From Nonomuraea polychroma (lineage in GTDB: Bacteria > Actinomycetota > Actinomycetes > Streptosporangiales > Streptosporangiaceae): 64,000 nucleotides of DNA. The position numbers and the translations under genes were made by a program. The stretch spans positions 310,001 to 374,000 of the forward strand of contig NZ_SAUN01000001.1 of the NCBI RefSeq assembly GCF_004011505.1, in the 5' to 3' direction. The notes under the pieces were generated by a model, which saw only the letters and a list, made by a program, of their open reading frames with translations, did not search any database and had not been told where the DNA came from. Shown here piece by piece: positions 42,041 through 62,807 of the stretch (the first letter of the stretch is position 1; each line of letters begins with the position of its first letter).

Positions 42041-42180
42041 CTCAGCACCATGCGACCCGCGACGCCTGCGGGCCGGTCCTCGGTAGTGGCTTCCGGTAGA
42101 CGTGACGTCTGACCGGGCGCTTCGATCGAAGACCGGCGCTGCACCTAACGAGGGTGCCGGTGAGAAAAGGGCGCGGGAGA
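42041..42180 (+). ncRNA. Actino-pnp-like structured leader
   Basis: The roughly 260 bp between the rpsO terminator and pnp have no gene but several hairpins: AGACG-tga-CGTCT (42098-42110), the palindrome CTTCGATCGAAG (42120-42131) and GCACC-N7-GGTGC (42141-42157 region). An Actino-pnp RNA motif is known in front of actinobacterial pnp genes and is thought to control PNPase level, like the RNase III-cut pnp leaders of other bacteria. Boundaries here are approximate, and the motif assignment rests on position and structure, not on a model search. Confidence 0.55.
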
Positions 42181-42201
42181 CCGACCACAAGGAGGTCCCC
42201 C

Positions 42202-47702: not shown

Positions 47703-48500
47703 CTAGCCCCCGGCGGGGGCGTCGCGGTGGGAGGCTAGCCAGTCGACGGCGTAGGCAACGGCCGCGGGCAGGGAGAACAGCCGGGCCTCGGCCGCACCGA
47801 CCCGGCCCCGCCGCACGACACCGGTCTCGTCGAAGTCCGCGCCCAGGGCGGCGAAGTCGCTCGCGTCCACGGCCACGTCCTCGAATTCGCACCACGTCCG
47901 CCCGTTCCCGTCGTCCACCACCGCACGGTAGCGGCGCCGCGGCGGGCTGGCGGTGTAGCGATATTCGGCCAGGTGAAAGGCCGTGCACTTGTCGTAGCCC
48001 ACGCCCAGCAGCAGGACCAGGGCGCCCGCGTCGTACAGGCGGGCGAGCGGGGACCGCTCGCCGAGCAGGCAGTCGCGGTCGTGCCCCTCGATGATCTCGG
48101 CCGCCCGCGAGCCCATGGCGGCGAAGGACGTGTGCGGATGCGCGCTGCGCAGAGCCCCGGGCAGCGTACGCACGTGCTCGGCGATCTGTCCCATCTGATG
48201 GGAGGGGGTCGTGGCCGGATCGAAGGCCGGCATGCGGGAGCGGTAGGCGGCGGCCTCGTCCGGGGTCATCCCGGCCACGGCGGCACGGTAGAGGGGAGAG
48301 GTGTCGGAATTGCCCGACGTGCCGGCGGGAACCACGAGTGTGCCGTCGCCACCGAGCACTTTCCGTAGCGCCGCGACGACCGTGCCCGCCCCGCACTCAG
48401 AGCGGCCGAGGCTCTTGAGCGAGGAATGCAGCAACACGACCTGCCCGAATCCCACACCCAATGCGGCGAAGTCCCGTGCTAACCGGTCAACGTCCAACAT
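47703..48500 (-). CDS. AAC(3) family N-acetyltransferase
   Basis: 265 residues. AAC(3) features: VVLLHSSLKSLG near the N-terminus, GDGTLVVP, HPHTSFAAMGSRAAEI and the C-terminal FAALGADFDETG. Could acetylate an aminoglycoside or a self-made amino sugar or peptide; resistance cannot be predicted from the sequence alone. TATACT at 48538-48533 on the minus strand is a likely -10. Divergent from the MFS gene. Confidence 0.88.
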   Translation of the reverse strand: MLDVDRLARDFAALGVGFGQVVLLHSSLKSLGRSECGAGTVVAALRKVLGGDGTLVVPAGTSGNSDTSPLYRAAVAGMTPDEAAAYRSRMPAFDPATTPSHQMGQIAEHVRTLPGALRSAHPHTSFAAMGSRAAEIIEGHDRDCLLGERSPLARLYDAGALVLLLGVGYDKCTAFHLAEYRYTASPPRRRYRAVVDDGNGRTWCEFEDVAVDASDFAALGADFDETGVVRRGRVGAAEARLFSLPAAVAYAVDWLASHRDAPAGG

Positions 48501-48625: not shown

Positions 48626-50236
48626 GTGTTTCCTTTCGGATGGCGGGCCACAGAGCTGCTCGCTATGTCAGCGCACAGAATTCCTGGTTATACTCTGACG
48701 GGTCCTCGGCAGCAGCTCCAGCCGGAAATACTGCCGTCCGAAATACTCCAGGATCGGGCTGTCACTGTGGCCACCCCTTTCGATGACCGTATGGTCATGA
48801 CCCCAGAGGAAACCACTGGGGAGGGGAGTCCGGAGGGATCAGGCGGAGGCTGGCGGCGGATCCGGCGCCTGCGAAGGAACGTCGAGCTGAATCTGCTCTG
48901 GACGGGATCGGCTGTTTCCACGTTCGGCACCCGCACCCTCAGCGTGGCCTATCCGCTCCTGGCCCTGGCCGAGGGCAACTCGCCGATCGCCGCGGGCTGG
49001 GCGGGATTCGCCTTTACCGTCCCGATCCTGATCCTCTACATACCGGGCGGGCTTCTGGTTGACCGAATATCCCCCCGGCGCGTCATGCTCGTCGCCGAGT
49101 TCGTGCGGGGACTAACGGTGGGCACCGTCCTCCTGACGATGATCTTCGGGCATCTGTCGCTGATCCACATCATGATCGCCGCCGCCGTCGAGGGCGCGAT
49201 GTGGGCCCTCTACACACTGGCCGAGTCGTCGCTGCTGCCCTCGCTGGCGCATCCGGGCACGATGCGGCGCGTGCTGGCCAAGAGCGAAGGTGCGACCCAT
49301 GTCGGCTCGCTTCTCGGCCGGCCGGTGGGCGGATATCTGTTCGGCCTCGGCAGTGCCTTCCCTTTTGCGCTCAACACCGCGCTCTTCGTCGTCTCCTGGG
49401 GGTTGTTCCTCAGCGTGCGACGCCCGTCCGAGCGCACGCCCGCGGGTCCCTCGCAGCTGCGGGATCTGTCCGGAGGCTTCCGCGAGCTCATGCGGCAGCC
49501 GTTTCTCCGCAGCTCCATCCTGTTGATCACGATCACCAATCTGATGATCAACACTCTCATGATGGTCTTCGTCGCGGGGTCCCACGGGCTGTCCTCGCTG
49601 TCGATCGGCGTGGTGCTCGCCGCGGGTGGCGTCGGGGGGGCGGTGGGAGCCGGTCTGGCCTTCTTCAGGAGTCCACCGCGTTCCGTGCTGCTGGTGCACA
49701 TGTGCATCTGGGGCGTCGCGCTCTTCCTGGCGGCACTGGGCACCTGGGTGGGCGCGTGGCTGCCGTTCTTCGCCGCGGCGTTCTTCATCACCGGCATGGG
49801 GGGCGCGTGGAGCAACGTGGCGATCCGTGAGGTGGAGGTCAATCGCATCGATCCTCGCACGCTGGCTCGCGTCGTCGGCGTCTCGCGGTTGTCCGCCCAC
49901 GCGGCGATCTGCCTCGCCGCCCCCCTGGGCGGTCTCCTCGTCACCTGGTACGGCGTGACAGGCGGCGCGTCCGCGTTGTTCGTCGTGATGATGTCGGCCA
50001 TTGTGTTGATCTCGTGCTCTCCGAAGGCACGCGAAGCGCTGGTCCCGCGCCTGCCCGGCCCGTTAAGCCAGAACCGCCGGGTGCCCGTGCCGACGCATGC
50101 CCCCGTGCCGGCTCTGTGTGTGGAGCCTCCGCCTGAGGTGTCCCGCACTCAGGAGTTCCAGCATGAGCCATCAGTCAGAGAGTCATCGCGCGAGTCGTCC
50201 CTCAGCTCGTCGCGGCCATGCCCGGCGAACGTGTAG
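48626..50236 (+). CDS. MFS transporter (MFS_3 / EntS-like exporter)
   Basis: 536 residues from GTG 48626, but ATG 48665 or ATG 48791/48797 is as likely; none has a good ribosome site. The membrane part starts around ELNLLWTGSAVSTFGTRTLS and has about 11-12 helices with GGLLVDRISPRRVMLVAE as the loop 2-3 motif. The C-terminus is an unusual 60-residue polar tail rich in Pro and Ser. It could export the product of the adjacent RiPP locus or an antibiotic; proximity is the only argument. Stops 10 bp from the converging nSTAND1 gene. Confidence 0.88.
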   Translation: MFPFGWRATELLAMSAHRIPGYTLTGPRQQLQPEILPSEILQDRAVTVATPFDDRMVMTPEETTGEGSPEGSGGGWRRIRRLRRNVELNLLWTGSAVSTFGTRTLSVAYPLLALAEGNSPIAAGWAGFAFTVPILILYIPGGLLVDRISPRRVMLVAEFVRGLTVGTVLLTMIFGHLSLIHIMIAAAVEGAMWALYTLAESSLLPSLAHPGTMRRVLAKSEGATHVGSLLGRPVGGYLFGLGSAFPFALNTALFVVSWGLFLSVRRPSERTPAGPSQLRDLSGGFRELMRQPFLRSSILLITITNLMINTLMMVFVAGSHGLSSLSIGVVLAAGGVGGAVGAGLAFFRSPPRSVLLVHMCIWGVALFLAALGTWVGAWLPFFAAAFFITGMGGAWSNVAIREVEVNRIDPRTLARVVGVSRLSAHAAICLAAPLGGLLVTWYGVTGGASALFVVMMSAIVLISCSPKAREALVPRLPGPLSQNRRVPVPTHAPVPALCVEPPPEVSRTQEFQHEPSVRESSRESSLSSSRPCPANV

Positions 50237-50246
50237 GCGCCGCGAA

Positions 50247-52328
50247 TCAGCCGCCGACGACCAGTTGTCTCGCGTCGTTCGCCAGGTGGTCGGGCAGGGC
50301 CGGTGCGCGCGCCGAGATCGCCCGCTTGGCCAGGCCGACCGCCGACGTGGTCTGGCCCGCCAGGTGCTCGACTTTGGCCGCGTACAGCAGCAACGGGCCG
50401 TGCGCCACCTCCGGATCGCGATCTGAGGCCTCCTTCAGCGCCTCGATCATCTCCTCCTGGGCCTGCGGGATGCTGTCGGTTTGGGCGAGCGCGAGGGCGT
50501 GCGCGACCTTGGCGAACGGCCACCGCAGGGGTTTCGCCCTGTCGAGATCGCGTAGCGCGGCCTTCGCTTTGCCCATGCCGGCCAGCATCTGCCCACGGCT
50601 GAGCAGGGCGTCGGTGTTGTTGCCCTCCCTGTCCAGCACGCTGTCGAGCACCCCCACGGCCGCTTCCAGGTGGCCACCGTGCCACAGGGCCCATGCCAGC
50701 TCCGTCTGGATGGACAGATCCGCGGGCACGCGCACCATCGCGGCGTGCAGCTCGCGTACGGCCTCGGCGGGGAAGCCCTGGGCCAGCCGTAGCCGTCCGA
50801 TGGCCGTCAGCAGAGGCCCCACGGCGCCCACCGCCCCGGCGGTCTCGAAGGCTTTGGCCGCCTCGCTGTAGTGCGCGATCGTGGCCTCCAGATCGCCGCG
50901 CTCATGGGCCACATTGCCGAGCATCGATTCGATCCGCGCGCGCAGCCGCAGGTCGTCCTCCTTCGACCGGGCCAGCGCCTCTTCGCCGAGCTTGGCCGCC
51001 CGGCGGAGATCGTCTTCCCGCAAGGCGTCCTCCGCCCCACGCAGGAAGTCCTCGGGCCCCAACCGGGGCAGGGACAGGTCGGCCGGACGGTCGCCCTGCT
51101 CGGCGGGCTGGACCAGCCGGTCGTACGCCAGCTCCAACGACCCCTCGCCCCGGCGCTGGTCGGCCCTCAGAAGATGGCGTTTCACCAACTGGGCGATCAC
51201 GGCCGCGCCGAGCCCCGCGTTCCTCACCGCACTACGCCGGACCGGTTGCCGGCCGCCGGGCTGATCGCCGAAGGTCAGCCGCAACCATGCCCTCAACCTG
51301 CGGTCGTCGCCGTCAAGGCGCTCGGCGGCGATCCGCCTCATCTCCCCTTCGTAGTATTCGGACAGAGCTCTCTCGGTGTAGTGGTGCACGTCCCTCGTGG
51401 TGATCTCGGCTGTCTCCGGCGGCAGGGATTTCCACAGGGCCTCGCAGACGACCTGGAGCTGGACAGGCTCAACCCCCTCTGGTTCGTACGTGCCGTTCGT
51501 ACGCGTTCTGACCGTGATGAGGTCGCGCACGACCTGTTCGGCGGCGCCCGTGGCGAACGTGCGCCCGGTGCCGCGGATGGGCTCCCGCACAGCCTCCAGA
51601 GCGCCGCCGAAGCTCAGCACCTCCAGCGGGAAGCGTTCCCAATCGAGCTCCGGACCATCCGGAGAGCTCTTCCGCTCGGGCTCGGCCAGTTCACATTCGT
51701 AGGGGAGGAGCTCCATCAGCCGGTCGATGCGGATCGACACCAGCAGGCGGAGACCCCGGTGCGCCCGCAGCGCCTCAGCGAGCTGGGCGAAGAACCAGTC
51801 CCGGTACAGCCGGTTCCGCCGGCCGCCGGCGAAGAGCTCCTCGGCCTGGTCAATGGCCACCAGCATGGGAAGGCGGTCGCCGAAGGCGTCGCGCTTGACC
51901 GGCCGGGCCTCGAGGAACGCGGGAATCGTCATGCCCGCGAGCCGGTTGGGCGGCGCCGACGGCGCCCATGACATCAGCAGGGCGAGAACGAAAGGATTGT
52001 GTGGCGGGAGCGCGGCTCGTGGGAAGGCCGTTCCGTAGGAGACCCGGCCGATCGGAAGCACGTCCGCCGCGTGCGTGCCGAGCAGCGGCATGACGCCGGC
52101 CTGGAGCAGCGAGGTCTTCCCGACACCGGAGGCGCCGTAGAGAACGGTCAACCGCTGTGACTGCCATAACCTGCGTAGTTCTCGAGATTCCTCGTCACGT
52201 CCGAAAAATCTGTGACGGTCGTCGAGCTGAAATGCCCGCAGGCCCTGGTACGGCGTCGGTGTCGTTTGCTGTCTCTTCGTGCTGGGAGTCACCATGCTGA
52301 TCTCATTCGCAGCCGCATTCCATCGCAC
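50247..52328 (-). CDS. nSTAND1 ATPase with TPR region
   Basis: 693 residues from ATG 52328; ATG 52295 is an alternative. PYQGLRAFQLDDRHRFFGRD before the Walker A GASGVGKT (about 65-72) is the novel-STAND-NTPase-1 signature. Walker B is LVAIDQAEEL at about 156-165. The C-terminal third is TPR-like helices (ALREDDLRRAAKLGEEALARS and similar), without an obvious effector domain. STAND ATPases act as switches in signalling and immunity. It lies directly downstream of the RiPP precursor on the same strand, separated by a hairpin. Confidence 0.9.
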   Translation of the reverse strand: MRWNAAANEISMVTPSTKRQQTTPTPYQGLRAFQLDDRHRFFGRDEESRELRRLWQSQRLTVLYGASGVGKTSLLQAGVMPLLGTHAADVLPIGRVSYGTAFPRAALPPHNPFVLALLMSWAPSAPPNRLAGMTIPAFLEARPVKRDAFGDRLPMLVAIDQAEELFAGGRRNRLYRDWFFAQLAEALRAHRGLRLLVSIRIDRLMELLPYECELAEPERKSSPDGPELDWERFPLEVLSFGGALEAVREPIRGTGRTFATGAAEQVVRDLITVRTRTNGTYEPEGVEPVQLQVVCEALWKSLPPETAEITTRDVHHYTERALSEYYEGEMRRIAAERLDGDDRRLRAWLRLTFGDQPGGRQPVRRSAVRNAGLGAAVIAQLVKRHLLRADQRRGEGSLELAYDRLVQPAEQGDRPADLSLPRLGPEDFLRGAEDALREDDLRRAAKLGEEALARSKEDDLRLRARIESMLGNVAHERGDLEATIAHYSEAAKAFETAGAVGAVGPLLTAIGRLRLAQGFPAEAVRELHAAMVRVPADLSIQTELAWALWHGGHLEAAVGVLDSVLDREGNNTDALLSRGQMLAGMGKAKAALRDLDRAKPLRWPFAKVAHALALAQTDSIPQAQEEMIEALKEASDRDPEVAHGPLLLYAAKVEHLAGQTTSAVGLAKRAISARAPALPDHLANDARQLVVGG

Positions 52329-52387
52329 ATTTACTCCACGACAGTCAGGATGCGCGACATCTTCGCATGCGCGAGATGGTCAGCACA

Positions 52388-52424
52388 CCCGCCCGCGGAT
52401 ATTAAAGACATGTCCGCCGGCGGG
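52388..52424 (-). terminator. Imperfect hairpin between precursor and nSTAND1 genes
   Basis: CCCGCCCGCGGA (52388-52399) and TCCGCCGGCGGG (52413-52424) pair at 10 of 12 positions around a 13-base AT-rich loop. It would act as a leaky terminator, letting the precursor be expressed more than the downstream ATPase. Confidence 0.55.
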
Positions 52425-52432
52425 CGCGGTGA

Positions 52433-52588
52433 TCAGATGGAGTTTTGGAAGGCCGCCATCTGGTCGTTGACGTCGGTCAAGCAGGAAGCCACCGCTTCCC
52501 GGAGTGCGGCGCTGTCCAGCATGGCCATCTCGCGCAGCGAAACAGAACTCACATCGATCATGCTCGAGCCGTAGTGCCCGTCACGCAT
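52433..52588 (-). CDS. FxsA-like RiPP precursor peptide, core FQNSI
   Basis: 51 residues from ATG 52588, set by GGAG 5 bp upstream; a longer frame to 52693 exists but lacks a ribosome site. The leader (MIDVSSVSLREMAMLDSAAL then EAVASCLTDVND) has the acidic helical pattern of FXSXX-COOH precursors and the C-terminus is QMAAFQNSI. In the family the core is F-x-S-x-x-COOH, with the Phe and third residue joined as a cyclophane by FxsB. Here the third residue is Asn. Divergent from fxsT over 155 bp. Confidence 0.8.
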   Translation of the reverse strand: MRDGHYGSSMIDVSSVSLREMAMLDSAALREAVASCLTDVNDQMAAFQNSI

Positions 52589-52659
52589 GTGCGCTCCATC
52601 CTTTTCGGTCACCCAAAATCTCGGACGATATGCAGGCGCTTTCTCGTGAACGTCGCTGA

Positions 52660-52676
52660 TTATGATTCTGTGATAA
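52660..52676 (-). promoter_or_regulatory. Shared regulatory element, copy 1 (TTATCACAG-N4-ATAA)
   Basis: On the minus strand TTATCACAGAATCATAA, about 71 bp before the precursor start and 67 bp before the fxsT start. It matches copy 2 before the KAP operon at 13 of 17 positions, with the variable bases confined to the central four. Confidence 0.7.
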
Positions 52677-52743
52677 ACGGGACGACTAATCAAGCTCTAA
52701 GATAGGGGCCCATAGCTCTTCGGGCGTGAAGCGGAGGACCGAC

Positions 52744-55257
52744 GTGGCTGACAATTCCGTGCCCTCACCAGGACCGAAGGTCTGGGAACGCGTTCCGAAG
52801 CGCAATCCGGACTTCACCGGCCGCAAAGATCTTCTAACGGCGCTCAGGAAGAGCATGCACACGGTGACCGCCGTTGTGGCTCAGCCTCAGGCGCTGCAGG
52901 GCCTCGGAGGCGTCGGCAAGACGCAGTTGGCGATCGAGTACGCCTGGCAATATCGTTCCCACTACGAGCTGGTGTGGTGGGTCTCTGCCGACCAGCCGCT
53001 CCTCGTTCCCTCGGTCCTGGCGTCAATGGCGCCGGCTCTCGGCCTGCCGCCGGCGACCAGCACCGGCGTGGAGCAGGCCACCCAGTCGGTCCTGCGTGCG
53101 CTCGAGAGCGGATCGCCCTTCCGCAGCTGGCTGGTGATCTTCGACAACGCCGAGGAACCGGAATACATCATGGACTTCCTTCCCCGGGGTCCCGGCCACG
53201 TCCTCATCACGTCGCGCAACTCCCGCTGGAGCGACCATGAGCCCACCATCGAAGTGGACGTGTTCAGGCGTGAGGAGAGCAGGGCGTTCCTCAGCAGGCG
53301 GCTGAGGAATGCGATCAGCGAGAGCGAGGCCGACCGCTTGGCCGAGAAGCTGGGGGACCTGCCTCTCGCGCTGGAACAGGCCGCCGCCCTGCTGGGCAGG
53401 ACCCTGATGTCAGTGGAGGAATATCTCGGGTTGCTGGAGGAGCAGACGAGCCGGCTGCTCAGCCTGGAGAAGGCGCCGACCTATCCGCTGTCGATGACCG
53501 CCGCCTGGCAGCTGTCGGTCTCCCAGCTCCAGGACCGCATCCCCGCGGCGGTCGAGGTGCTGCGCTGCTGTGCGTTCTTCGGCCCGGAGCCGATCCCCCG
53601 CGACGTCTTCCGCCGCGGCAACCGCGCGGTGGGAGAGCGGCTGTCGCCCATCCTGTCGGACCCGATCGAGCTGACCAACGCGCTGAGCCATCTGGAACGC
53701 CTGGCCCTGGTCAAGGTCGAGCCGTCCACCCGCACCCTCCAGGTCCACCGGCTGAACCAGGCGCTGCTGCGGGATGAGACCCCCGAGAAGGACCGCTCGG
53801 AGCTCCGCCACGAAGTCCACCTGCTCATGTCGGGTACGGCCCCGAGCGATCCCGACGATACGGCGAACTGGGCTCGGTTCGAGGAGCTCGCCGCCCACCT
53901 GGAGCCGTCGGGAGTCATCGACTGCACCGTGCCGGCCGTGCGCAAGTTCGCCCTCGACCTCGTGCGTTACCTGTACGTACGCGGCAGCTACAACCAGGCC
54001 GAGACGCTGCTCAACGAGTACATCGAGAAATGGACGGAGGTGAGCGGCGCCCGTCACAAAGACGTGCTCGTCGCCCGCATCCACCTGGGCCTGATCCACC
54101 AGGCGCTGGCCAGGTACGCCGAGGCCGAGAAGATCGTGTCCGAAGCCCTCGACATGATGGTCGCCACTCTCGGTGCCGAGCACTCGGAAACGTTGTGGGC
54201 GAAGGGCGCCTACGGTGCGGCCCTGCGTGGGCGCGGTGAGTTCGCCAGGGCACAGGAGATCGACGCCGAGAGGGCCGACGTCTACCAGCACCAGCACGGC
54301 GACGACCACAACCTGACCCTGCAGGCCCGTAACAACCTGGCCGTGGACTATGCGCTGACCAGCAGATACGACGAGGCCCAGAAGCTCCTCCGGCAGATCT
54401 ACCTCTACCGGAGCGGCGTGGAAGGCGTCGGCCGCCGCGTCCTGCTCTCGACGTGGAACAACCTCAACAGCGTCGTGCGCTTGGGCGGCCAGTCCCAAGT
54501 GGCGGCGGACATGGCCGAGGAGGCCTACGGCTATGGCGTCGCGCAGCTCGGCGACGATCACCCCATCACCCTTCAGGCGGCCAAGGACTACGCGATCGCG
54601 TTACGCAGAAGCGGCCGGATCGCCGATGCGCTGCAGCGCATGAGGGACACTCACGCCCGCCTTCAGCGGTTGTTCGGAGACGAGCACGCCGACACCATGG
54701 CGGCCGCGCTCGGCCTGTCCAACGTGCTGCGTGCGAACGCCGAGTACGAAGAGGCGCTCGAGCTGGCGCGGCAGACGGCCGGCCGGTACCCCAAGGTGTT
54801 CGGAGCCGACCACCCGTTCACGCATGCGGCCGGGATCGACGTGGCGCTGCTCCTGCGGCTCACGGGTGAGGTCGCGGCGGCGCGGGAGCTCAACGAGAAG
54901 ACCTTGGCCGCTCTCAGCGATCGGCTCGGCCCCGACCACGATTACACCGTCACGTGTGCGATCAACCTGCAGAACGACCTGGCGGCGCTCGGCAGGCACG
55001 ACGAGGCCCGCGTGCTGGGCGAGGAGAACTACCGGCGGATCCAGACGTTCTTCACCCCCGACCACTACCTCAGCCTCGTCTGCGCGGCCAACCTGTGCCT
55101 GGACCTGCTGGCGACAGGAGCTGAGAACGAGGCCAAGCGGCTGCTGGCGGAGACGGCGCAGCGCTTTGAGACGGTCATGGGGCGCGAGCACCCTGACGCG
55201 CTGGCGCTGCTGGCCGGCGAGCGGCTCAGCGCCGACTTCGATCCGCCGGTCATTTAG
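52744..55257 (+). CDS. fxsT: FxSxx-COOH system NB-ARC/TPR protein
   Basis: 837 residues from GTG 52744, chosen for GGAGG 7 bp upstream (an in-frame GTG at 52726 lacks one). N-terminal NB-ARC ATPase with Walker A GLGGVGKT at about 53-60 and SWLVIFDNAEEP as Walker B, a winged-helix-like segment, then ten or more TPR units to the C-terminus (for example AEKIVSEALDMMVATLGAEH). This architecture is the named TPR component of FXSXX-COOH systems, assumed to sense or regulate. Converges on the HExxH gene, with a 4 bp 3' overlap. Confidence 0.9.
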   Translation: MADNSVPSPGPKVWERVPKRNPDFTGRKDLLTALRKSMHTVTAVVAQPQALQGLGGVGKTQLAIEYAWQYRSHYELVWWVSADQPLLVPSVLASMAPALGLPPATSTGVEQATQSVLRALESGSPFRSWLVIFDNAEEPEYIMDFLPRGPGHVLITSRNSRWSDHEPTIEVDVFRREESRAFLSRRLRNAISESEADRLAEKLGDLPLALEQAAALLGRTLMSVEEYLGLLEEQTSRLLSLEKAPTYPLSMTAAWQLSVSQLQDRIPAAVEVLRCCAFFGPEPIPRDVFRRGNRAVGERLSPILSDPIELTNALSHLERLALVKVEPSTRTLQVHRLNQALLRDETPEKDRSELRHEVHLLMSGTAPSDPDDTANWARFEELAAHLEPSGVIDCTVPAVRKFALDLVRYLYVRGSYNQAETLLNEYIEKWTEVSGARHKDVLVARIHLGLIHQALARYAEAEKIVSEALDMMVATLGAEHSETLWAKGAYGAALRGRGEFARAQEIDAERADVYQHQHGDDHNLTLQARNNLAVDYALTSRYDEAQKLLRQIYLYRSGVEGVGRRVLLSTWNNLNSVVRLGGQSQVAADMAEEAYGYGVAQLGDDHPITLQAAKDYAIALRRSGRIADALQRMRDTHARLQRLFGDEHADTMAAALGLSNVLRANAEYEEALELARQTAGRYPKVFGADHPFTHAAGIDVALLLRLTGEVAAARELNEKTLAALSDRLGPDHDYTVTCAINLQNDLAALGRHDEARVLGEENYRRIQTFFTPDHYLSLVCAANLCLDLLATGAENEAKRLLAETAQRFETVMGREHPDALALLAGERLSADFDPPVI

Positions 55258-56510
55258 CCGTTCCTGACGGCCCAGGCTTCCCTGTGGCGTTCCGACTGCA
55301 GGCGGGCCTGGGCGGCGGCGGCCGCCGTGACCGGCTCGGACCGCCACCGGCCGAGTGTGTCACGCAGCGTGCTGACGAAGTGTGTCCCGGCTTCCGTCAG
55401 CGCGCCGCTGTCCAGGAGCGTCCCGGCGACCTGGTACGCGGCCTCGCGCCAGCGGGCGAACTCCACCTGCGCACGCATCCCGTGGTCGGCGTCGTCCGTG
55501 TGCCGCCGCCAGAAGCCGGCGACGCCCGCGTGCGCGTACGCGCCGTGCAGCAGGCCGGACACCGGCCGCGGGTCCGGACGCCACGGCGCGTAGAAGCGGC
55601 GGCCGTCGTCCGGCCCGGTCAGCTCCACCACGTCGCTCAGCGCGTACAGCTTGGCGTGCTGCAACTCGTGCGCCAGGGTCGCCGCCATGCCGATCCCGTC
55701 GATCGGGTCGGACAACGCGATCGTGCCGAACGTGTCCCGCGCGGACGCGCTGTGCTGTTCGAGCGAGCGCGTGACGACGGGCGTGAGCACCGAGACCGCC
55801 ATGGCGATCTCCCCGCCCACCGTCCAGTGACGGGCCCGCAGGACCTCCCAGGCCTCGCGCAGGCAGGAGACCCAGCGCCGCCGCCGCTCCTCCGTCAGAC
55901 GCTCGTCGACGTCGTCCCCGGGCCAGCGGTACGGGTCGAGGTCGTCGATGGTCATGAGCACGTCGGGCCCGAACGGCACACGACGGAGGACCTGCCAGCC
56001 GGGCCGGTCACGGGTCAGGTCCAAACGGCGTACGTGGCCGCCGACCCGCAGCTCGGCCCCGTCCTCCGACGGCTCGACGGAGGCCACGGCCACGTCCGGC
56101 ACGTCGCCGGGCAGAGCCAGCAGGCCCAGCGAGGGCAGCATCAGCGTGCCGCCGCGCACCGGCACGGCCAGGCGGCAGGCGGTGCGGGTGCGCACCGCGG
56201 CGGCCAGCGCGACCGCCGCCAGCCGCCCGGGGTCGGCCTGGCCGCGGCAGGCTCGCAGCGCCCATGCCCCCACCGCCGGGTAGCGCAGGCAACGGCCGAG
56301 CTCCTCCGGGGCGTCGGCTTCCATCTTCGACAGCGCTTCGTAAGCGCGGGACACCAGGTCGTCGCGGGCCTGGTCCACGAGCAGGCGCACCAGCAGACGG
56401 TGCTTGCTCGCCTGAGCCGCGCACAGCTCAGCCACGGCCTGAGCGCCCCCGGCGCCCGCGGCCAGCCCGGAGAAGGCGGCGCCGGAGACCTGGTGCGGGG
56501 TGAGGCTCAT
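55254..56510 (-). CDS. HExxH-motif peptide hydroxylase
   Basis: 418 residues from ATG 56510 (ATGA overlap with fxsB). Metal motif HELQH at 281-285 in ATLAHELQHAKLYAL. Proteins of this type occur beside FxsB maturases and have been described as 2-oxoglutarate-dependent peptide beta-hydroxylases rather than proteases. It would add a hydroxyl to the precursor, perhaps at or near the cyclophane. No signal peptide. Coupled to fxsB, so both probably act on the same peptide. Confidence 0.88.
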   Translation of the reverse strand: MSLTPHQVSGAAFSGLAAGAGGAQAVAELCAAQASKHRLLVRLLVDQARDDLVSRAYEALSKMEADAPEELGRCLRYPAVGAWALRACRGQADPGRLAAVALAAAVRTRTACRLAVPVRGGTLMLPSLGLLALPGDVPDVAVASVEPSEDGAELRVGGHVRRLDLTRDRPGWQVLRRVPFGPDVLMTIDDLDPYRWPGDDVDERLTEERRRRWVSCLREAWEVLRARHWTVGGEIAMAVSVLTPVVTRSLEQHSASARDTFGTIALSDPIDGIGMAATLAHELQHAKLYALSDVVELTGPDDGRRFYAPWRPDPRPVSGLLHGAYAHAGVAGFWRRHTDDADHGMRAQVEFARWREAAYQVAGTLLDSGALTEAGTHFVSTLRDTLGRWRSEPVTAAAAAQARLQSERHREAWAVRNG

Positions 56511-57739
56511 CCGGCTCCCCGCAGCCGCGCCATGTCCCGTGCGCATCGCGTCGCGATGTACGTGATCAGCCGGTACATGTCGGCGCAGTAGACGGACGGC
56601 TCGGCGAACCCGGTGGCCGCGCTGTAGCGGTGAGCGTACAGGCCGCCTCCGCAGGTGGACACGATGTCGCAGCGGCGGCAGACCGGGGAGAGGGCCAGCT
56701 CGCCGATCTGGCGGGCGACGATCGACGGGTGCAGCAGCGCGTTGTCCAGGGGGTCGCGGAGCACGTGCAGCCGGGTCTCGGGAGCGCCGTGGTAGGTGCT
56801 CTTGAGTATGTCGGACTGCTCGATGCTCCCGTCGGTCTCGATCACCACCATGCGGACGGGTGACAGCCCCACACTCTCCGCACGTGAAGGGCTGCCCATC
56901 AGCAGCCGCATGATCTCCCTGAACAGCCGGATCTCGGTCTGCAGGACGGGGCTGTCGTACCAGAAGTCGAAGATCGGGATCAGCCAGTCGGCGTACGGCG
57001 TCTCGGGCGAGCCGGGTTCGCGGAACGGCGGTGGAGTGGCCCAGTTGCCGTGCGGCAGCAGGAAGTCGATCGCCGGCGGGTCGTACTCCAGCAGCGCCTG
57101 GTAGGTCCGCACCGGATCGTTGCGTACGTCGATCGTGCACAGGAGGCCGCTGAAGAGGTGATGGTACGGGCCCGCGGACAGCCTCCGCAGCGACTCGCTG
57201 ACCACGGCGTGGCTGCCGCGCCCGTTGGGGAGGCGGCGGTGCCGGTCCTGCCCTTCGGCGTCGCCGTCCATGCTCACGCCGACGCGGATCTCCAAGGATT
57301 CGAACAACCGCAGGTACGCCTCGTCCAGCCGGACGCCGTTGGTCTGGACGTTGACGTTGACCCTCGTGCCCGTGTCCACCGCGCCGCGCACGCCGCACAC
57401 CACGCGGGAGATGAGCTCGGGGCCGGCCAGCAGCGGCTCGCCGCCGTGCAAGATGACGTCGATCTCCGCCAGGTCGTGGCGGGAGGCGTGCTCGGCGATG
57501 CGCTCGACGGCGCGGTCGGCGATGGCCTCGGACATCCTGCGCGGCCGCGCGCGCCAGCTCTGGTCCGCCATCTCGTACACATAGCAGTACCGGCAGGCGA
57601 GGTCGCAGCGGCTGTGGATCTTCAGGATGAACTGCTGGAAGGCGAGTGGCTTCCAGCCCTCCGCCAGTAACGTGTCGACGTCGAGGCGATCCGGGAACTC
57701 CGTGGTGCGCAGCGGTCCCGAATCAGGGCTTCCTAACAA
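56507..57739 (-). CDS. fxsB: FxsB family radical SAM/SPASM cyclophane maturase
   Basis: 410 residues from TTG 57739 with AAGGGG 6 bp upstream. Radical SAM cluster site CDLACRYC (Cys45, 49, 52) and VILHGGEPLL; the C-terminal SPASM region has SPVCRRCDIVSTCGGGLYAH and a later SVYCADM. The opening WKPLAFQQFILKIHSRCDLA is characteristic of FxsB. It forms a three-residue cyclophane in the precursor. A TTGACT box overlapping the upstream stop may give it its own promoter. Confidence 0.93.
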   Translation of the reverse strand: MLGSPDSGPLRTTEFPDRLDVDTLLAEGWKPLAFQQFILKIHSRCDLACRYCYVYEMADQSWRARPRRMSEAIADRAVERIAEHASRHDLAEIDVILHGGEPLLAGPELISRVVCGVRGAVDTGTRVNVNVQTNGVRLDEAYLRLFESLEIRVGVSMDGDAEGQDRHRRLPNGRGSHAVVSESLRRLSAGPYHHLFSGLLCTIDVRNDPVRTYQALLEYDPPAIDFLLPHGNWATPPPFREPGSPETPYADWLIPIFDFWYDSPVLQTEIRLFREIMRLLMGSPSRAESVGLSPVRMVVIETDGSIEQSDILKSTYHGAPETRLHVLRDPLDNALLHPSIVARQIGELALSPVCRRCDIVSTCGGGLYAHRYSAATGFAEPSVYCADMYRLITYIATRCARDMARLRGAG

Positions 57740-57839
57740 CGGCTACCCCTTAAGCGTCGTGCGCCCCATCGCGGTACCTGAGTTGATCGCGTGGGAGGAG
57801 CGCTACACCCCGTCCCTATTTCTCATGAATTCGCCAACG

Positions 57840-57845
57840 AGTCAA
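57840..57845 (-). promoter_or_regulatory. Possible -35 box of fxsB
   Basis: TTGACT on the minus strand, which contains the TGA stop of the upstream ATPase gene. A GAAATA follows after 17 bp as a weak -10. The 102 bp gap before fxsB has no other feature. Confidence 0.35.
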
Positions 57846-60571
57846 GATTTGTGACGATAAGAGCGAATTTCCTCTTGGTAATATAGCAATTCCTCGAAAT
57901 ATAGGTAAAGTTCATCGATTTCGGGAACGAGGGGCAGCCAGTGATAGCCGCCCAGCCCGTCCTGTTCCAGGGGGGACAGCAGGCGGGCGGCCGCTCTGAG
58001 CTCGTTCGGCGGGATCTCTCCGGGCGCGAGCTGCCCCACTCCGCCCCGATACGCCCGGGCGAGCGGATGGCTCTGCCCGCGCACGCCGAGCGCGGCCAGC
58101 ACCAGCTCGGCGGGATGCTGGGACGTCGCGCCGGCGGCCAGGTCCGGCCAGTCGGGGTTGGCCAGCGCCACGAGGACGCGCAGCTCGGGCGGCAGGTCCC
58201 TGAGCGCGCGCGGCGGCTGCTCCAGATGCGTGTGGTGCTGCTTGCGCGCCAGGAGCGAGAGCACCTCAGGGGTCCGCTCGCGCAGGCCCCGCCGCACCTC
58301 CTCCACGCAGGCGGCGGGGGAGCGCTCGGTCATCGCCAGACGGCGGCCGATCGCCTGCCGCACCAGCGCCAGCGGCTCCACCAGGATGGCGTCCACCAGC
58401 GCCGGGTATCCCCTGTCCGGGTCCTCCTTACAGGCGTAGGCGTAGCGGATCACCGGGTCGGCGGCGCCGGGGCGGGCGTGCCGGCGCAGCTCACGGCTCA
58501 GCTGGTCGAGGTCGGCCCGGGAGTCCAGCGGCGCGCCCCGCCGGAATATCCACGATTTGGCCAGTCTCGCGGCGGGGACGGTCCCGGCGCCCCCCACGGC
58601 GACGGCCACCGCGACCAGGGCCAGGGCAGGTTGGGTGGTCCCGCCGAGCGCGAGGCCCGTCGCCAGCAGCAGCACGGCCGCGACGAGGGCGACGATCGCC
58701 AGCGTGAGCTGTGTCCGCCACTCGTGGATGACGTGCTGGCGGGCCTTGCGGAAGCCGTCCCAGTCCGCGGCGGCCCGCGCCGCCCGCGCTTCGGCGATGC
58801 GGTCGGCCAGGTCCCGTCGCCTGGCCGGCCACCCCGAGGCCGCAGGTTGCGGCGGCCGGCCGACCTCTGCGAGTTTGCGGCCGAGCGCCACGGACTCGCC
58901 TCGCCGCTGCGACCCCAGCTCCTCCAGGTACGCCCTGAGCTCCCGCAATGTCTCGCTCAGCAGCGCCGGATCCGACGCGGGCCGGTCCTTGACCGCCAGC
59001 ACGGACGCGGCCCGGGCCACGAGCTCGTCCAGCTCGCGGGAGAACGCCGGGGAGCCGTCGGCGACCAGCACCGTGTGCACCACGCGGCGCAGGGCGGTCA
59101 GGACCGGAGGGCTGACGTACCCGGTGACCAGGAGGGCCGTGTAGACGGCCGTGATGTCCCCGCCCGGCGCCACCATGTCGGCGGCGTTGGACACCTCGTC
59201 GTCGAAGAAGACCGCCTCGGTCAACTTGATGACGACCAGCGGCCTGAGCGAACCGGGCAACCGGAACGTCGCCGACCTGTCCTCGCCGGGGATGCGCTCG
59301 GCGTCGAGCCCCGCTGCCAGCAGCTTCGACTCGACCAGCATGGACAGCTCGGCCAGCGCGGGGGCGCGACGGTAGCGGAGCGCGGCGGTCCCGACGACCT
59401 CCGGGTCGATGTCCGCGCCCCGAGCGGCCTCGTAGCTCGCCCAGGCCAGCTGGAGCAGCAGCCGGACATTGCCGCCGCTGTGGCGCAGCAGCTCCCGCAG
59501 GCCCGCCTCGGTGATCGGCCTGATGTCCTCACGGGCTGTCGGGCGCACGGCGTCGAGGTAGACCCGCAGCACGAGCCGGGCGTCGTCGGGCACGAGCGGC
59601 ATCATGTGGATGGCGCCAGGGCCGATGCGCTGGTGCAGGTCCGGCGGCATGGCCTGCCAGCCGGCCGCGCTCGCCACGAGGAGCAGCAGCCCGCCGGCCC
59701 GCGGGACCACCTCGACCAGGCTCTGCAGCAGCCCCAGGTTCGGCGGCACCGGGACCCCGTCCTCCAGCAGGAACTTCTCGCACTGGTCGAAGACCATCAC
59801 GAAGGGCCGGCCGCTGCGGGTCACCAGCGTGGCCAGCAATTGCAGGCCGTAGCGGCAGGTCTGGGGATCGTCGATCTGCCGGCTCACGCCGAGCGCCCGG
59901 GCGGCGTCCAGGCCGATCGGCCGCCCGCACAACCAGTCATAGGCGGCGTCGGAGAACTCGGGCCGGATCAGGAACGACAGTGCCCGCTGGAAGCGCTCCC
60001 CGTCGCCCGTCACCGCGGCGATCTCCCTGGCCTGCGCCTCCAGCACCCGGCCCGCCTCGATCAGGTGGGCGTCGAACAGGTCGAACACCCGTGTCGGCTC
60101 GGTGTCGAGTGCGGACATGAGCGAGCGCCGATCGCCGGCCATGCCCGCGTTCGCTGCCTGGTCGCCGGCGAGTGTGCCGAGGTAGCGCACGATCAGATCG
60201 GTGAGCAGGCCCTGGGACAGCTGGGGCACCAGACGGCGGTAGGCGGCGACCAGATCGTCGTCCTGGAAGCGTACGTACAGCTGGACCGCCTCGGGCTCCC
60301 GTACGTGGACCGTGGCCATCAGGTGGCGGGCCGCGTGCGTCTTGCCCGCGCCGTGGGCGCCGTACAGGCAGCCGAGACCGCCGTGTCGGGTCGCCTCGTC
60401 CGGGAAATCCTGGGCGTACGCCTCGGCCAGGCGCTCGGCGTCACGCACGCCGGGCAGCGGCGCGGTCGGCGTACGCTCCGCCCACGCGCGCAACGTCTCC
60501 GGCAGGATCGTCTCCTCGGCGCTGGCCGTGCCACGGGCCGGGAACGGGTTGCGGGTGAGATGTTCAGCCAC
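57842..60571 (-). CDS. Membrane-anchored P-loop ATPase
   Basis: 909 residues from GTG 60571, behind GGGAGG and overlapping the upstream stop by 8 bp. Walker A GAHGAGKT at about 71-78; Walker B-like VMVFDQCEKFL near 280. Two adjacent hydrophobic helices at roughly 650-715 (TLAIVALVAAVLLLATGLAL, then ALALVAVAVAVGG) place it at the membrane; the C-terminal 190 residues are helical. No known effector domain. Third gene of the KAP operon next to fxsB. Confidence 0.8.
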   Translation of the reverse strand: MAEHLTRNPFPARGTASAEETILPETLRAWAERTPTAPLPGVRDAERLAEAYAQDFPDEATRHGGLGCLYGAHGAGKTHAARHLMATVHVREPEAVQLYVRFQDDDLVAAYRRLVPQLSQGLLTDLIVRYLGTLAGDQAANAGMAGDRRSLMSALDTEPTRVFDLFDAHLIEAGRVLEAQAREIAAVTGDGERFQRALSFLIRPEFSDAAYDWLCGRPIGLDAARALGVSRQIDDPQTCRYGLQLLATLVTRSGRPFVMVFDQCEKFLLEDGVPVPPNLGLLQSLVEVVPRAGGLLLLVASAAGWQAMPPDLHQRIGPGAIHMMPLVPDDARLVLRVYLDAVRPTAREDIRPITEAGLRELLRHSGGNVRLLLQLAWASYEAARGADIDPEVVGTAALRYRRAPALAELSMLVESKLLAAGLDAERIPGEDRSATFRLPGSLRPLVVIKLTEAVFFDDEVSNAADMVAPGGDITAVYTALLVTGYVSPPVLTALRRVVHTVLVADGSPAFSRELDELVARAASVLAVKDRPASDPALLSETLRELRAYLEELGSQRRGESVALGRKLAEVGRPPQPAASGWPARRRDLADRIAEARAARAAADWDGFRKARQHVIHEWRTQLTLAIVALVAAVLLLATGLALGGTTQPALALVAVAVAVGGAGTVPAARLAKSWIFRRGAPLDSRADLDQLSRELRRHARPGAADPVIRYAYACKEDPDRGYPALVDAILVEPLALVRQAIGRRLAMTERSPAACVEEVRRGLRERTPEVLSLLARKQHHTHLEQPPRALRDLPPELRVLVALANPDWPDLAAGATSQHPAELVLAALGVRGQSHPLARAYRGGVGQLAPGEIPPNELRAAARLLSPLEQDGLGGYHWLPLVPEIDELYLYFEELLYYQEEIRSYRHKS

Positions 60572-61556
60572 GGAAGCCTCCCGGTCCCGGTCCGTACCAT
60601 GTCTCGTCCCTGCGCATGTTGAGCAGCAGCCAGTCCTCATCCATCCGCAGGCCGTCGGTCGGCCACGGCTCGTCGCCGTCGTACTGGCGCAGCCGGGTGT
60701 CGAGCAGCCTGTGCAGGTGGCGCAGGGCCAGGCCGATGGTGCAGGGATGCTCGTGGAAGGCCTTGCAGACGCCCTCGGAGTCGAAGGGGGAGGGCCGGCG
60801 ACCGGTCCACCGGTGGTCGGCCAGCGCCGCGATCTGAGCGGCGGACAGCGGACTCAGGTCGGTGATGTGCCCGCGCCTGGCGAACTCCTGCCGGTCCGCC
60901 CTCGTGAGCTGTACGGCGGTCGCGTGCCGGTAGTTGTCGACGGTGAACACCACGACCGTGCTCGCGTTCTCGAACACCCTGGTGGCCTGGATGATCAGCT
61001 CCTTGGTCGCCACGCCCTCGTACCGGATGCCGAAGCCCATGTCGTGCGCCGCGAAGATGGACGCGGCGTAGTCGGCGATCTCCTGCAGCTCGTAGTCGTC
61101 CATGGCCTGCGAACGCGGCCTCTTGCTCAGGTCCGTGAACATCTCGGCCAGCGGGAGCGGCACGTCGATCTGGTTGGCACGCATCTTGGCGCGTAACGAG
61201 AGCAGCGTGGAGCGCAGCGTGCGATAGGCGTCGTGCGTCATCTCGCCGCGCTCCGCGCAGTGCGTGACCAGGCTGAAACAGGGCAGGCGGGCGGCCCTGG
61301 CGTGCTGGTAGCGGTACATGATGTGGTTCGCCAGGGAGGTCCGGCCGCTGTTGCCCATGCCGGTGATGAGGAAGAAGGCCGGCTTGTTCGCGTCCGCCGC
61401 GCCTTTCACGGTCGCCTCGATCGTGGCGAGCCGGATGAAGCCCTCGAGCTCCAGCAGGCGGTCGTCCTCGGAGGTGAGGGGGTCCAGGGGGCGGCCGGCG
61501 TAGGGGTTGCCCGAGCGTAGCCCGTACAGCTCGTAGCGGGCGTCGGTGACGTGCAT
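60564..61556 (-). CDS. P-loop ATPase with Arg in Walker A
   Basis: 330 residues from ATG 61556, 3 bp after the KAP gene stop. The P-loop reads GMGNSGRTSLA (66-76): the invariant Lys is Arg. Later TVVVFTVDNYRH could be a weak Walker B. Helical C-terminus. It may bind nucleotide without hydrolysing it, or act as a regulatory partner for the ATPases on both sides, with which it is translationally linked. Confidence 0.8.
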   Translation of the reverse strand: MHVTDARYELYGLRSGNPYAGRPLDPLTSEDDRLLELEGFIRLATIEATVKGAADANKPAFFLITGMGNSGRTSLANHIMYRYQHARAARLPCFSLVTHCAERGEMTHDAYRTLRSTLLSLRAKMRANQIDVPLPLAEMFTDLSKRPRSQAMDDYELQEIADYAASIFAAHDMGFGIRYEGVATKELIIQATRVFENASTVVVFTVDNYRHATAVQLTRADRQEFARRGHITDLSPLSAAQIAALADHRWTGRRPSPFDSEGVCKAFHEHPCTIGLALRHLHRLLDTRLRQYDGDEPWPTDGLRMDEDWLLLNMRRDETWYGPGPGGFRG

Positions 61557-61559
61557 CGC

Positions 61560-62807
61560 TCACCCCCCGATCATGGTCAGGTAGACGGGCAGCTCGTCCT
61601 CGAACGCCTCGAAGCGGGAATCGGCGAAGAGCGGCGCCAGGAAGTCGTGGGAGTAGTGGTGCCTGTCCAACGCTCTTCGTATGAGCGAGGCATGCGATTT
61701 GAAGCGCTTGTCCACTTCCGGTGACGTGCCATTGAGTTTGCCCTGGTAGACCAGCTCGAGCGCCACGAGGAGGGAAGGGGTGCGGACCACGTCCGTGAAC
61801 AGCTCCGGGCTCTGCACGCGGAGCACCACCAGGCGGATGACCAGCCCCTTGTCCAGGCCGGCCAGGCCGGGGGTGCCCGCGATGATCGCCTCGGTCACGC
61901 GCAACAGGTTGAGCACGCGTTTGATCTTGCGTGGATTGGCGGAGACGATCTTCTCCAGCGTTTTCACGTGCGCACCGGCCAGCTCTCCGGGGCCGGATTC
62001 CAGGATGAAGCGGCCCACCTCGGCGGGGCCGAGCGGATAGAGGTGCAGCGGGAGCTGGATCATCTTGTCCAGGTACTCATCGCCCAGGCGGTCCGTGGCG
62101 GTGAAGCCGAACGGCTGGTATTTGATCGACACGCCCCGGTCCACCACGTCCTTGGCCAGCGCGATCAGCACGAAGACGTGTTCGATGTCCAGGAACAGCT
62201 TGATCGACTCCAATACGTCGATGATCTGGTCGGGCTCGCACCGGTCGAGGTCATCGATGAAGAAGATGATTTTTCGGCCTTTTTCGGCCAAGCGGTCGGC
62301 TTCCTTCTGCAGCAGCGTGCGCAGGCGGCCGGTCTGGCTGTCGACCTGGCCGCGCATCTCGGCGTACTGCTGGGCGAGCTTGCCGATCTTCTCCACGCTC
62401 GCCGAGCCCAGGTTGATCTTCTTGAGCATCTCGTCGGCGGCCAGATTGAGCATGATCGCGCCAAGCCGCTTGGCGGTGTCGGCGAAGCGTTGCTTGGGGT
62501 CCTCGTTGAGCTCGGTGTGCAGGGCGTTCAGGAGGGGGAGCAGCATCTGCGGCTCGCGGCGGTGCACCCAGGGGTTGAAATGCACGCGGACGAACTCGTC
62601 GCCGTGCCGGTCCAAAAGCCGATCGTCCACCATTTTCAGCAGGGTGGACTTTCCGGATCCCCAGGCGCCGTAAACGCCGATGGTAAACGGCGTCTGCGTA
62701 CGGGGATTGGTAATGACCGAAACGAGCGGATCGACGTACCGGCGAAACTGGAGAAGGTCACCGTGCCAATTGACCGGCGCGTCAGAGAGCATTGCGATAT
62801 CGGGCAT
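61560..62807 (-). CDS. KAP family P-loop NTPase
   Basis: 415 residues from ATG 62807, behind AAGGGGGG. Walker A GAWGSGKS at 47-54, FNPW in VRVHFNPWVHRREPQ, a helical insert at about 105-170, Walker B IIFFIDDLDRCEP near 180-192. KAP NTPases are membrane-associated switches, often in phage-defence or signalling systems. First gene of a three-ATPase operon, with copy 2 of the shared element 51 bp upstream. Confidence 0.92.
   Translation of the reverse strand: MPDIAMLSDAPVNWHGDLLQFRRYVDPLVSVITNPRTQTPFTIGVYGAWGSGKSTLLKMVDDRLLDRHGDEFVRVHFNPWVHRREPQMLLPLLNALHTELNEDPKQRFADTAKRLGAIMLNLAADEMLKKINLGSASVEKIGKLAQQYAEMRGQVDSQTGRLRTLLQKEADRLAEKGRKIIFFIDDLDRCEPDQIIDVLESIKLFLDIEHVFVLIALAKDVVDRGVSIKYQPFGFTATDRLGDEYLDKMIQLPLHLYPLGPAEVGRFILESGPGELAGAHVKTLEKIVSANPRKIKRVLNLLRVTEAIIAGTPGLAGLDKGLVIRLVVLRVQSPELFTDVVRTPSLLVALELVYQGKLNGTSPEVDKRFKSHASLIRRALDRHHYSHDFLAPLFADSRFEAFEDELPVYLTMIGG

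What the first reader, a model, noticed from the sequence alone, without database searches (positions are those of the whole stretch)
52433..57739. Fxs-type cyclophane RiPP locus with an atypical FQN core
The 51-residue precursor ends AAFQNSI. The named family ends F-x-S-x-x-COOH, so Asn replaces Ser at the crosslinked third position. A cyclophane between Phe and Asn (F-Q-N) is the direct prediction, and the adjacent HExxH hydroxylase may act on the same peptide. The reading frame at the 3' end is unambiguous. This would be a product variant not covered by the family name.
Basis: partly seen in the sequence, partly recalled or inferred. Interest (0 to 1): 0.88.

Follow-up and report, generated by a model that had tools for sequence, protein, structure and literature searches.

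The report
Asn-tailed cyclophane peptide locus, NLR-like partner
A soil actinomycete encodes a small peptide whose tail is probably stapled between a phenylalanine and an asparagine, a variant that most of its close relatives share, and the peptide gene sits beside, and seems co-regulated with, a gene for an immune-receptor-like ATPase.

Summary
In detail: a 51-residue precursor ending AAFQNSI (52433-52588, minus), fxsB (56507-57739), an aKG-HExxH hydroxylase gene (55254-56510) and a divergent NB-ARC-TPR gene. It is not an error: of 17 orthologous Nonomuraea loci, 14 have Asn and 3 Ser at the third core position. In 62 further FxsB loci that position is Ser 38, Asn 9, Gln 8, Ala 6, Asp 1, and NCBI's "FxSxx" model already accepts some Asn and Gln tails. 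F-x-N is a recurrent natural variant. The predicted Phe-Asn cyclophane is reported chemistry for related enzymes, though not, in what I could read, for an FxsB enzyme. The motif tracks FxsB: F-x-[SNQAD] in 78 of 79 fxsB loci, 0 of 13 fxsB-less ones. The hydroxylase is dispensable: lost at least three times among the orthologues, each time in Asn lines. All 17 keep the NB-ARC-TPR gene, divergent from the precursor across a conserved 51-bp block. That coupling is not universal: 6 fxsB loci have a precursor but no NB-ARC-TPR in the stretch held, and in 7 of 13 fxsB-less loci the precursor lies beside the hydroxylase gene. Best reading: an FxsB-type triceptide variant working with an NLR-like STAND protein. 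Crosslink and function are untested.

The parts
52433..52588 (-). FxsA-like precursor peptide, 51 aa, C-terminus A-A-F47-Q48-N49-S50-I51; predicted crosslink F47 to N49
   Evidence: sequence; TIGR04268 22.2 bits (cut-off 28); orthologues
52656..52706 (-). conserved block between precursor and NB-ARC-TPR gene; TTGATT (52693-52688), 17 bases, CAGAAT (52670-52665) read towards the precursor; promoter-like by conservation only
   Evidence: alignment; nhmmer: 29 of 85 fxsB loci, every hit in or at the edge of this gap. consensus scan found no promoter; one search found the block in 0 of 22 fxsB-less stretches
52726..55257 (+). NB-ARC + TPR STAND-type protein (FxSxx_TPR); likely start GTG 52744 behind GGAGG
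   Evidence: NF040586 947.6 bits; NB-ARC, TPR_12, TPR_10; TPRs nearest to kinesin light chain
55254..56510 (-). stand-alone aKG-HExxH-type peptide beta-hydroxylase, 418 aa, motif HELQH
   Evidence: TIGR04267 167.1 bits; PDB 22nu E=5.9e-39, ChlH 8s5f E=1.8e-7
56507..57739 (-). FxsB radical SAM/SPASM cyclophane-forming maturase, 410 aa
   Evidence: TIGR04269 472.9 bits; ChlB 9gm3 E=5.7e-77; CxxxCxxC and three C-terminal (SPASM) Cys invariant in 85 of 85
50247..52328 (-). nSTAND1-TPR protein, next gene after the precursor on the same strand; recurrent neighbour
   Evidence: PF20703 4.7e-32; homologue over 100 bits in 53 of 85 FxsB loci
57842..60640 (-). 932-aa AAA-type protein upstream of fxsB, accessory, kept in part of the orthologous loci
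60564..61556 (-). 330-aa STAND-like protein (weak hits only), accessory
61560..62807 (-). KAP-family NTPase, accessory; resembles PifA/QatA-type ATPases of phage-defence systems
   Evidence: PF07693 2.5e-43; PADLOC PifA 1e-30, QatA 5.1e-29

Best explanation
An FxsB-type three-residue-cyclophane (triceptide) locus in a Nonomuraea-lineage actinomycete. FxsB most likely joins the ring of Phe47 to the beta-carbon of Asn49 near the C-terminus of the 51-residue precursor (inferred). The HExxH enzyme then hydroxylates the same peptide as an optional second step (inferred; site unknown). The peptide acts with the neighbouring, probably co-regulated NB-ARC-TPR protein, a STAND ATPase of the kind used as switches in conflict and signalling systems (association shown in this branch, mechanism inferred). 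Asn instead of Ser is a lineage-specific choice of the second crosslinked residue, one G/A transition away. No FxsB residue separates the Ser and Asn lines, so one enzyme type probably accepts both.
For: Asn in 14 of 17 orthologous loci with both AAC and AAT codons, Ser (AGC/AGT) in 3. In the 17, Phe is invariant, the last core residue is Ile or Leu, and Asn is the only candidate in F-D-N-F-I (L002), which keeps the i to i+2 register and excludes the neighbouring Ser as general target. F-x-[SNQAD] within the last 25 residues in 78 of 79 fxsB loci against 0 of 13 fxsB-less loci that keep precursor, hydroxylase and NB-ARC-TPR (Fisher p=6e-15; pattern chosen after seeing the fxsB tails, kinship not corrected). 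Catalytic cysteines invariant, 85 of 85. 0 FxsB columns separate Ser from Asn orthologues. Hydroxylase lost at least three times among the orthologues, with none found at E<=0.001 in two of those genomes. 17 of 17 orthologues keep the NB-ARC-TPR gene. 121 of 122 FxsB genomes also carry the NB-ARC-TPR family, of 200 searched. Shared 51-bp block in 29 loci including 11 not used to build it. Literature: XncB/OscB make C4(Phe)-Cbeta(Asn), MscB C4(Phe)-Cbeta(Ser) (PMC11002830, passages); ChlBH hydroxylates after the cyclophane (PMC12636437, passages).
Against: No product, mass or structure exists here; the crosslink is inferred from motif and homology. The peptide fails the TIGR04268 cut-off. Two orthologues (L016, L114) carry 10 residues beyond the core, so the free C-terminus is not essential. 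The coupling to NB-ARC-TPR has exceptions: 6 of 79 fxsB loci with a precursor have no such gene in the stretch held (L064, L070, L071, L073, L075, L077); 36 of 200 genomes have the NB-ARC-TPR family without FxsB; in 7 of 13 fxsB-less loci the precursor lies next to the hydroxylase gene and is not divergent from NB-ARC-TPR. The 51-bp block is in 29 of 85 fxsB loci and in none of 22 fxsB-less stretches. A consensus scan found no promoter.
Confidence: 0.62

Rival explanations
1. The product is a secreted antimicrobial or signal peptide; the MFS protein at 48626-50236 exports it, and the STAND genes are immunity or regulation.
For: An MFS gene of this type lies in 16 of 17 orthologous stretches (not L011) and directly after fxsB in Nocardia loci L071, L073 and L075, which have no NB-ARC-TPR in the stretch. 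An M16 peptidase gene lies at 44538-45848, though beside pnp and probably housekeeping. TPR receptors for short C-terminal peptides exist in other bacteria (recalled).
Against: No peptidase or ABC exporter among the 8 proteins from 48626 to 62807 that I scanned. The MFS gene faces the other way; outside the orthologues and Planotetraspora its matches are under 200 bits. MFS genes are common; no background rate was measured.
Confidence: 0.22
2. The Asn tail is a decayed or non-substrate tail: FxsB no longer crosslinks it and the peptide works unmodified.
For: Sub-threshold TIGR04268 score. Asn replaces the residue of the family name.
Against: Asn kept in 14 of 17 orthologues with silent codon change; the six FxsB cysteines present in 85 of 85; where fxsB is absent the motif is gone; related enzymes crosslink Phe to Asn (PMC11002830, passages).
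Confidence: 0.12
3. The crosslink goes from Phe47 to Ser50 (i to i+3), so the name residue Ser is merely shifted.
For: Ser50 is present in the window and in 12 of the 14 Asn loci.
Against: At that place stand Ala (L004), Phe (L002) and Thr (L009), while the third position is Asn or Ser in 17 of 17 orthologues. The triceptide links described in PMC11002830 (passages) are i to i+2.
Confidence: 0.04
4. The Asn is a sequencing or frame error for F-x-S.
For: Three close relatives have Ser here; one base distinguishes the codons.
Against: Thirteen orthologous loci besides the window have Asn, of which L003 and L111 are nearly identical.
Confidence: 0.01

Closest known systems
FxSxx-COOH / FxsB systems (NCBIfam TIGR04268, TIGR04269; Haft and Basu 2011, recalled, paper not held)
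   Same: FxsB over cut-off, leader homology, gene set, C-terminal core with Phe two residues before the partner
   Different: Asn for Ser; precursor under the 28-bit cut-off, although other members that pass also have Asn or Gln
Triceptide enzymes MscB, XncB, OscB (PMC11002830, passages)
   Same: radical SAM/SPASM, i to i+2 aromatic to beta-carbon link; MscB Phe-Ser; XncB and OscB Phe-Asn
   Different: XncB and OscB are listed under other InterPro families; no Phe-Asn product of an FxsB-family enzyme seen in what I read. That MscB is FxsB-type is recalled
ChlB/ChlH fused radical SAM and aKG-HExxH (PDB 9gm3, 8s5f; PMC12636437, passages)
   Same: homologous domains; there hydroxylation follows the cyclophane
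   Different: here two separate overlapping genes, and the hydroxylase is missing in 4 of 17 orthologous loci
Peptide-processing systems with AP-ATPase/TPR partners (PMC7159879, passages and section 24 read)
   Same: FxSxx peptide, zincin-like protein, radical SAM and AP-ATPase-TPR in one locus, peptide proposed as toxin or signal
   Different: that paper reads the zincin-like protein as a peptidase (that it is the HExxH protein is my inference); the Asn variant, the fxsB-less and HExxH-less states and the 51-bp block are added here

Membership tests
FxSxx-COOH precursor (TIGR04268) | curated score of 28 bits | tested here: not met
   22.2 bits
FxSxx-COOH precursor (TIGR04268) | F-x-S-x-x at the C-terminus | tested here: not met
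   F-Q-N-S-I. Of five fxsB-linked relatives tested: FSNSI (L008) 28.7, FVNDP (L062) 37.1 and FSQSI (L059) 36.6 pass; FSNSI (L111, 39-aa piece) 22.3 fails; Ser-tailed L012 is not matched
FxSxx-COOH precursor (TIGR04268) | homologous leader and position beside fxsB / NB-ARC-TPR | tested here: met
FxsB maturase (TIGR04269) | score over 370 bits; CxxxCxxC and SPASM cysteines | tested here: met
   472.9 bits; six cysteines 85 of 85
aKG-HExxH beta-hydroxylase (TIGR04267) | score over 40 bits and intact HExxH | tested here: met
   167.1 bits; HELQH
aKG-HExxH beta-hydroxylase (TIGR04267) | hydroxylation of this precursor | not testable with these tools
   needs expression and mass spectrometry
Triceptides | i to i+2 aromatic-to-Cbeta cyclophane in the product | not testable with these tools
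   motif only
FxSxx system NB-ARC-TPR protein (NF040586) | score over 300 bits | tested here: met
   947.6 bits

The most novel reading that the evidence does not exclude
In this branch the core is not a natural-product pathway but a two-part switch: a small peptide and an NLR-like NB-ARC-TPR ATPase made from one divergent control region. FxsB and the HExxH enzyme are interchangeable locks that change the peptide's tail (Phe-Ser, Phe-Asn, Phe-Gln cyclophanes, hydroxylation, or LWQxD/LFGGD-like tails with no cyclophane), and the tail is read by the TPR domain, so that tail diversity is receptor specificity.
Probability: 0.2. Interest if true: 0.75.

Novelty: new variant of a known kind. Interest (0 to 1): 0.44.

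Why it matters
If true, FxsB enzymes accept Asn (and perhaps Gln and Ala) as crosslink partner in nature, which widens the product set and offers natural enzyme-substrate pairs for peptide stapling. The natural losses of either modifying gene make a question testable: what does an NB-ARC-TPR protein beside a modified peptide sense? It also shows that the family name should not be used as a filter in genome mining.

Tried and rejected
Sequencing error: rejected by 13 other loci with Asn. Ser50 as crosslink target: rejected by Ala, Phe and Thr at that place. Covariation of FxsB with Ser/Asn: none; 0 FxsB columns separate the 3 Ser from the 14 Asn loci. The 2 separating columns of a joint FxsB + NB-ARC-TPR alignment lie in the NB-ARC-TPR part and are chance-level (39% of 560 control triples give as many, L111 left out there as near-duplicate of L003). 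Asn tied to hydroxylase loss: all 4 loss loci are Asn, but so are 10 of 13 others, so this shows nothing. Residue before Phe (A or G) tied to hydroxylase loss: dropped, since L001 and the wider family break it. Promoter consensus scan: nothing. Plasmid search with the precursor: no match. Literature searches (listings seen) showed no FxsB Phe-Asn product, but the primary triceptide papers are not held, so absence from print is not shown. No structure prediction was run.
Full report
What is there. On the minus strand lie fxsB (56507-57739) and a stand-alone HExxH gene (55254-56510), overlapping by four bases. The 51-codon precursor (52433-52588) is about 3.9 kb from fxsB on the same strand, with an NB-ARC-TPR gene (52726-55257, plus) lying between and divergent from the precursor. 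Family scores: FxsB 472.9 bits against a cut-off of 370; hydroxylase 167.1 against 40; NB-ARC-TPR 947.6 against 300; precursor 22.2 against 28. The precursor ends F-Q-N-S-I-stop, as reported.

Is the Asn real? One scan of genome contigs gave 80 FxsB loci (125 relatives found, the best 80 kept). A search of 54 same-genus genomes gave four further orthologous loci, which I fetched. In the 17 loci with the window's gene order (window, L001-L011, L016, L111-L114; FxsB identity 76% or more) the precursor tails are FQNSI (window, L006), FNNSI, FDNFI, FSNSI (L003, L111, L007, L008, L011, L113), FANSI, FSNTI, FGNSL (L016) and FDNSL (L114), against FQSAI (L004), FSSSI (L005) and FQSSI (L112). That is Asn 14, Ser 3. 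L003 and L111 are nearly identical, so 13 of 16 if merged. Codons are AAC/AAT against AGC/AGT, one transition apart. Nearest relative: L001 (Asn) by FxsB alone, L004 (Ser) in the joint tree with support 0.87. On the FxsB tree the third residue changes at least 4 times among these 17 plus the Planotetraspora outgroup L012, and at least 22 times over 79 loci.

The wider family. Of 85 FxsB loci (L001-L080, L111-L114, window), a precursor was found in 79; none in L024, L027, L036, L042, L072 and L078, some of them cut by contig ends. Outside the 17 orthologues, 62 precursors have third residue Ser 38, Asn 9, Gln 8, Ala 6, Asp 1. One precursor per locus was counted; L043, L068, L075 and L077 were assigned by eye from the printed sequences; L068 has His for Phe. 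Of five fxsB-linked precursors tested against TIGR04268, three with Asn or Gln pass the cut-off (L008, L059, L062), one Asn (L111, a 39-residue piece) fails with 22.3 bits, and the Ser-tailed L012 is not matched. So the name FxSxx is narrower than the family as curated, and the cut-off does not sort by the third residue.

Does the motif belong to FxsB? I looked for NB-ARC-TPR loci without fxsB nearby: 22 stretches fetched, of which 13 (from 11 genomes) have a recognisable precursor; the call for L150 is weak (E 0.04-0.12). All 13 also have hydroxylase and NB-ARC-TPR sequence. None has F-x-[SNQAD] in the last 25 residues. Tails are LFGGD (4), LFSGS (1), LWQ followed by ED, KN or SD (5), RWNKSD (1), and two with neither. 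L160 (LWQSD) does hold an aromatic-x-Ser, with Trp. With fxsB it is 78 of 79 loci; the exception, L030, has FQAKL followed by a long extension, and L068 counts only through an upstream F-G-A. The pattern was chosen after seeing the fxsB tails, and kinship is not corrected for. On the other hand the precursor model was built on fxsB-linked peptides, a bias against finding motif-less ones. In three of the genomes no FxsB was found at E<=0.001 (G022, G160, and G185, which is 84% complete); the other eight have one elsewhere.

Is the hydroxylase part of it? HExxH sequence is missing between fxsB and the NB-ARC-TPR gene in L002, L003, L009 and L111, at least three losses. The genomes were matched to loci by coordinates. 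G045 (L003) and G031 (L009) have no match at E<=0.001; G042 (L002) and G046 (L111) have only a 44-45% paralogue beside a second fxsB (7 genomes searched, places of fxsB). All four loci keep FxsB, the Asn precursor and the NB-ARC-TPR gene. So hydroxylation is an add-on. ChlBH, the studied relative, hydroxylates Asp and His after cyclophane formation (PMC12636437, passages). Which residue is hydroxylated here is unknown.

The NB-ARC-TPR partner. It is kept in 17 of 17 orthologous loci. Of the 85 loci, 74 have it over 100 bits, and in 66 of these 74 the precursor is divergent from it and close by. In 200 genomes of the family (searches list the same handles as far as shown), FxsB occurs in 122 and the NB-ARC-TPR family in 157; 121 of the 122 have both. 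Genomes are related, so the Fisher value of 2e-20 overstates independence. The gap between the two genes carries a 51-bp block. A profile built from 18 loci finds 29 loci at E<=1, every hit in or at the edge of this gap and none elsewhere in the window and L001-L116. Eleven of these were not used in building it, seven of them with E<0.01. Read towards the precursor it holds TTGATT-17-CAGAAT. Results against a general rule: the pattern scan called no promoter; the other 56 of 85 loci do not show the block; none of the 22 fxsB-less stretches does. In 7 of the 13 fxsB-less loci with a precursor (L151, L159-L161, L163-L165) it lies next to the hydroxylase gene, and only in 6 is it divergent from NB-ARC-TPR. 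Six fxsB loci have a precursor but no NB-ARC-TPR in the stretch held (L064, L070, L071, L073, L075, L077). Thirty-six of 200 genomes have the family without FxsB; several of those proteins lie in much longer open frames. So the coupling is a property of this branch, not of the entire family.

How it most likely works. Shown: gene content, conservation, dispensability of the hydroxylase, coupling in this branch. Inferred: FxsB links C4 of Phe47 to the beta-carbon of Asn49. This rests on the Phe-Ser link of MscB and the Phe-Asn links of XncB and OscB (PMC11002830, passages), on the conserved i to i+2 register, and on the absence of the motif without fxsB. Inferred more loosely: the modified tail works with the NB-ARC-TPR protein. 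PMC7159879 (section 24 read) already proposed that FxSxx peptides act as toxin or signal beside AP-ATPase-TPR effectors. My data add the Asn variant, the separate presence of either modifying gene without the other, and the shared block. The neighbouring nSTAND1 gene and, in part of the clade, the AAA, STAND-like and KAP genes fit a conflict-system setting, but no activity is shown.

Verdict. The finding is real, but 'atypical' only with respect to the family name. It is a lineage variant with a predictable Phe-Asn crosslink, in a locus whose more interesting property is the coupling of a modifiable peptide to an NLR-like protein.

Noticed in passing
L147, L155, L156, L158 (LFGGD); L160, L161, L163-L165 (LWQ + ED/KN/SD); L159: fxsB-less loci keep precursor leader, HExxH hydroxylase, NB-ARC-TPR and nSTAND sequence but have tails LFGGD or LWQ followed by acidic or amide residues: perhaps hydroxylase-only peptides with Asp as target. 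No NCBIfam model passes its cut-off on the four peptides tested.
   Followed up: partly
L016 and L114 precursors: core FGNSL / FDNSL is followed by 10 further residues, so the core is not at the free C-terminus there.
   Followed up: no
L167 8311-9276: remnants of fxsB beside an NB-ARC-TPR gene with no precursor found: a decaying locus (described only).
   Followed up: no
window 57842-62807: three further P-loop genes (AAA 932 aa, STAND-like 330 aa, KAP NTPase) lie upstream of fxsB on the same strand; all or part of the set is seen in Planotetraspora L012 and 13 of 17 orthologous stretches (some cut), and not in L002, L016, L113, L114.
   Followed up: partly
window 47703-48500: aminoglycoside 3-N-acetyltransferase family gene (PF02522, E=2e-80), next to the MFS gene; pnp-like and M16 peptidase genes lie at 42154-45848.
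   Followed up: no
window 62891-63604: GAF-ANTAR protein next to the KAP gene.
   Followed up: no
L071, L073, L075: Nocardia loci with FNSFI precursors (two in tandem in L075, motif repeated within one in L073), fxsB and an MFS gene directly after it, without NB-ARC-TPR or HExxH in the stretch.
   Followed up: no
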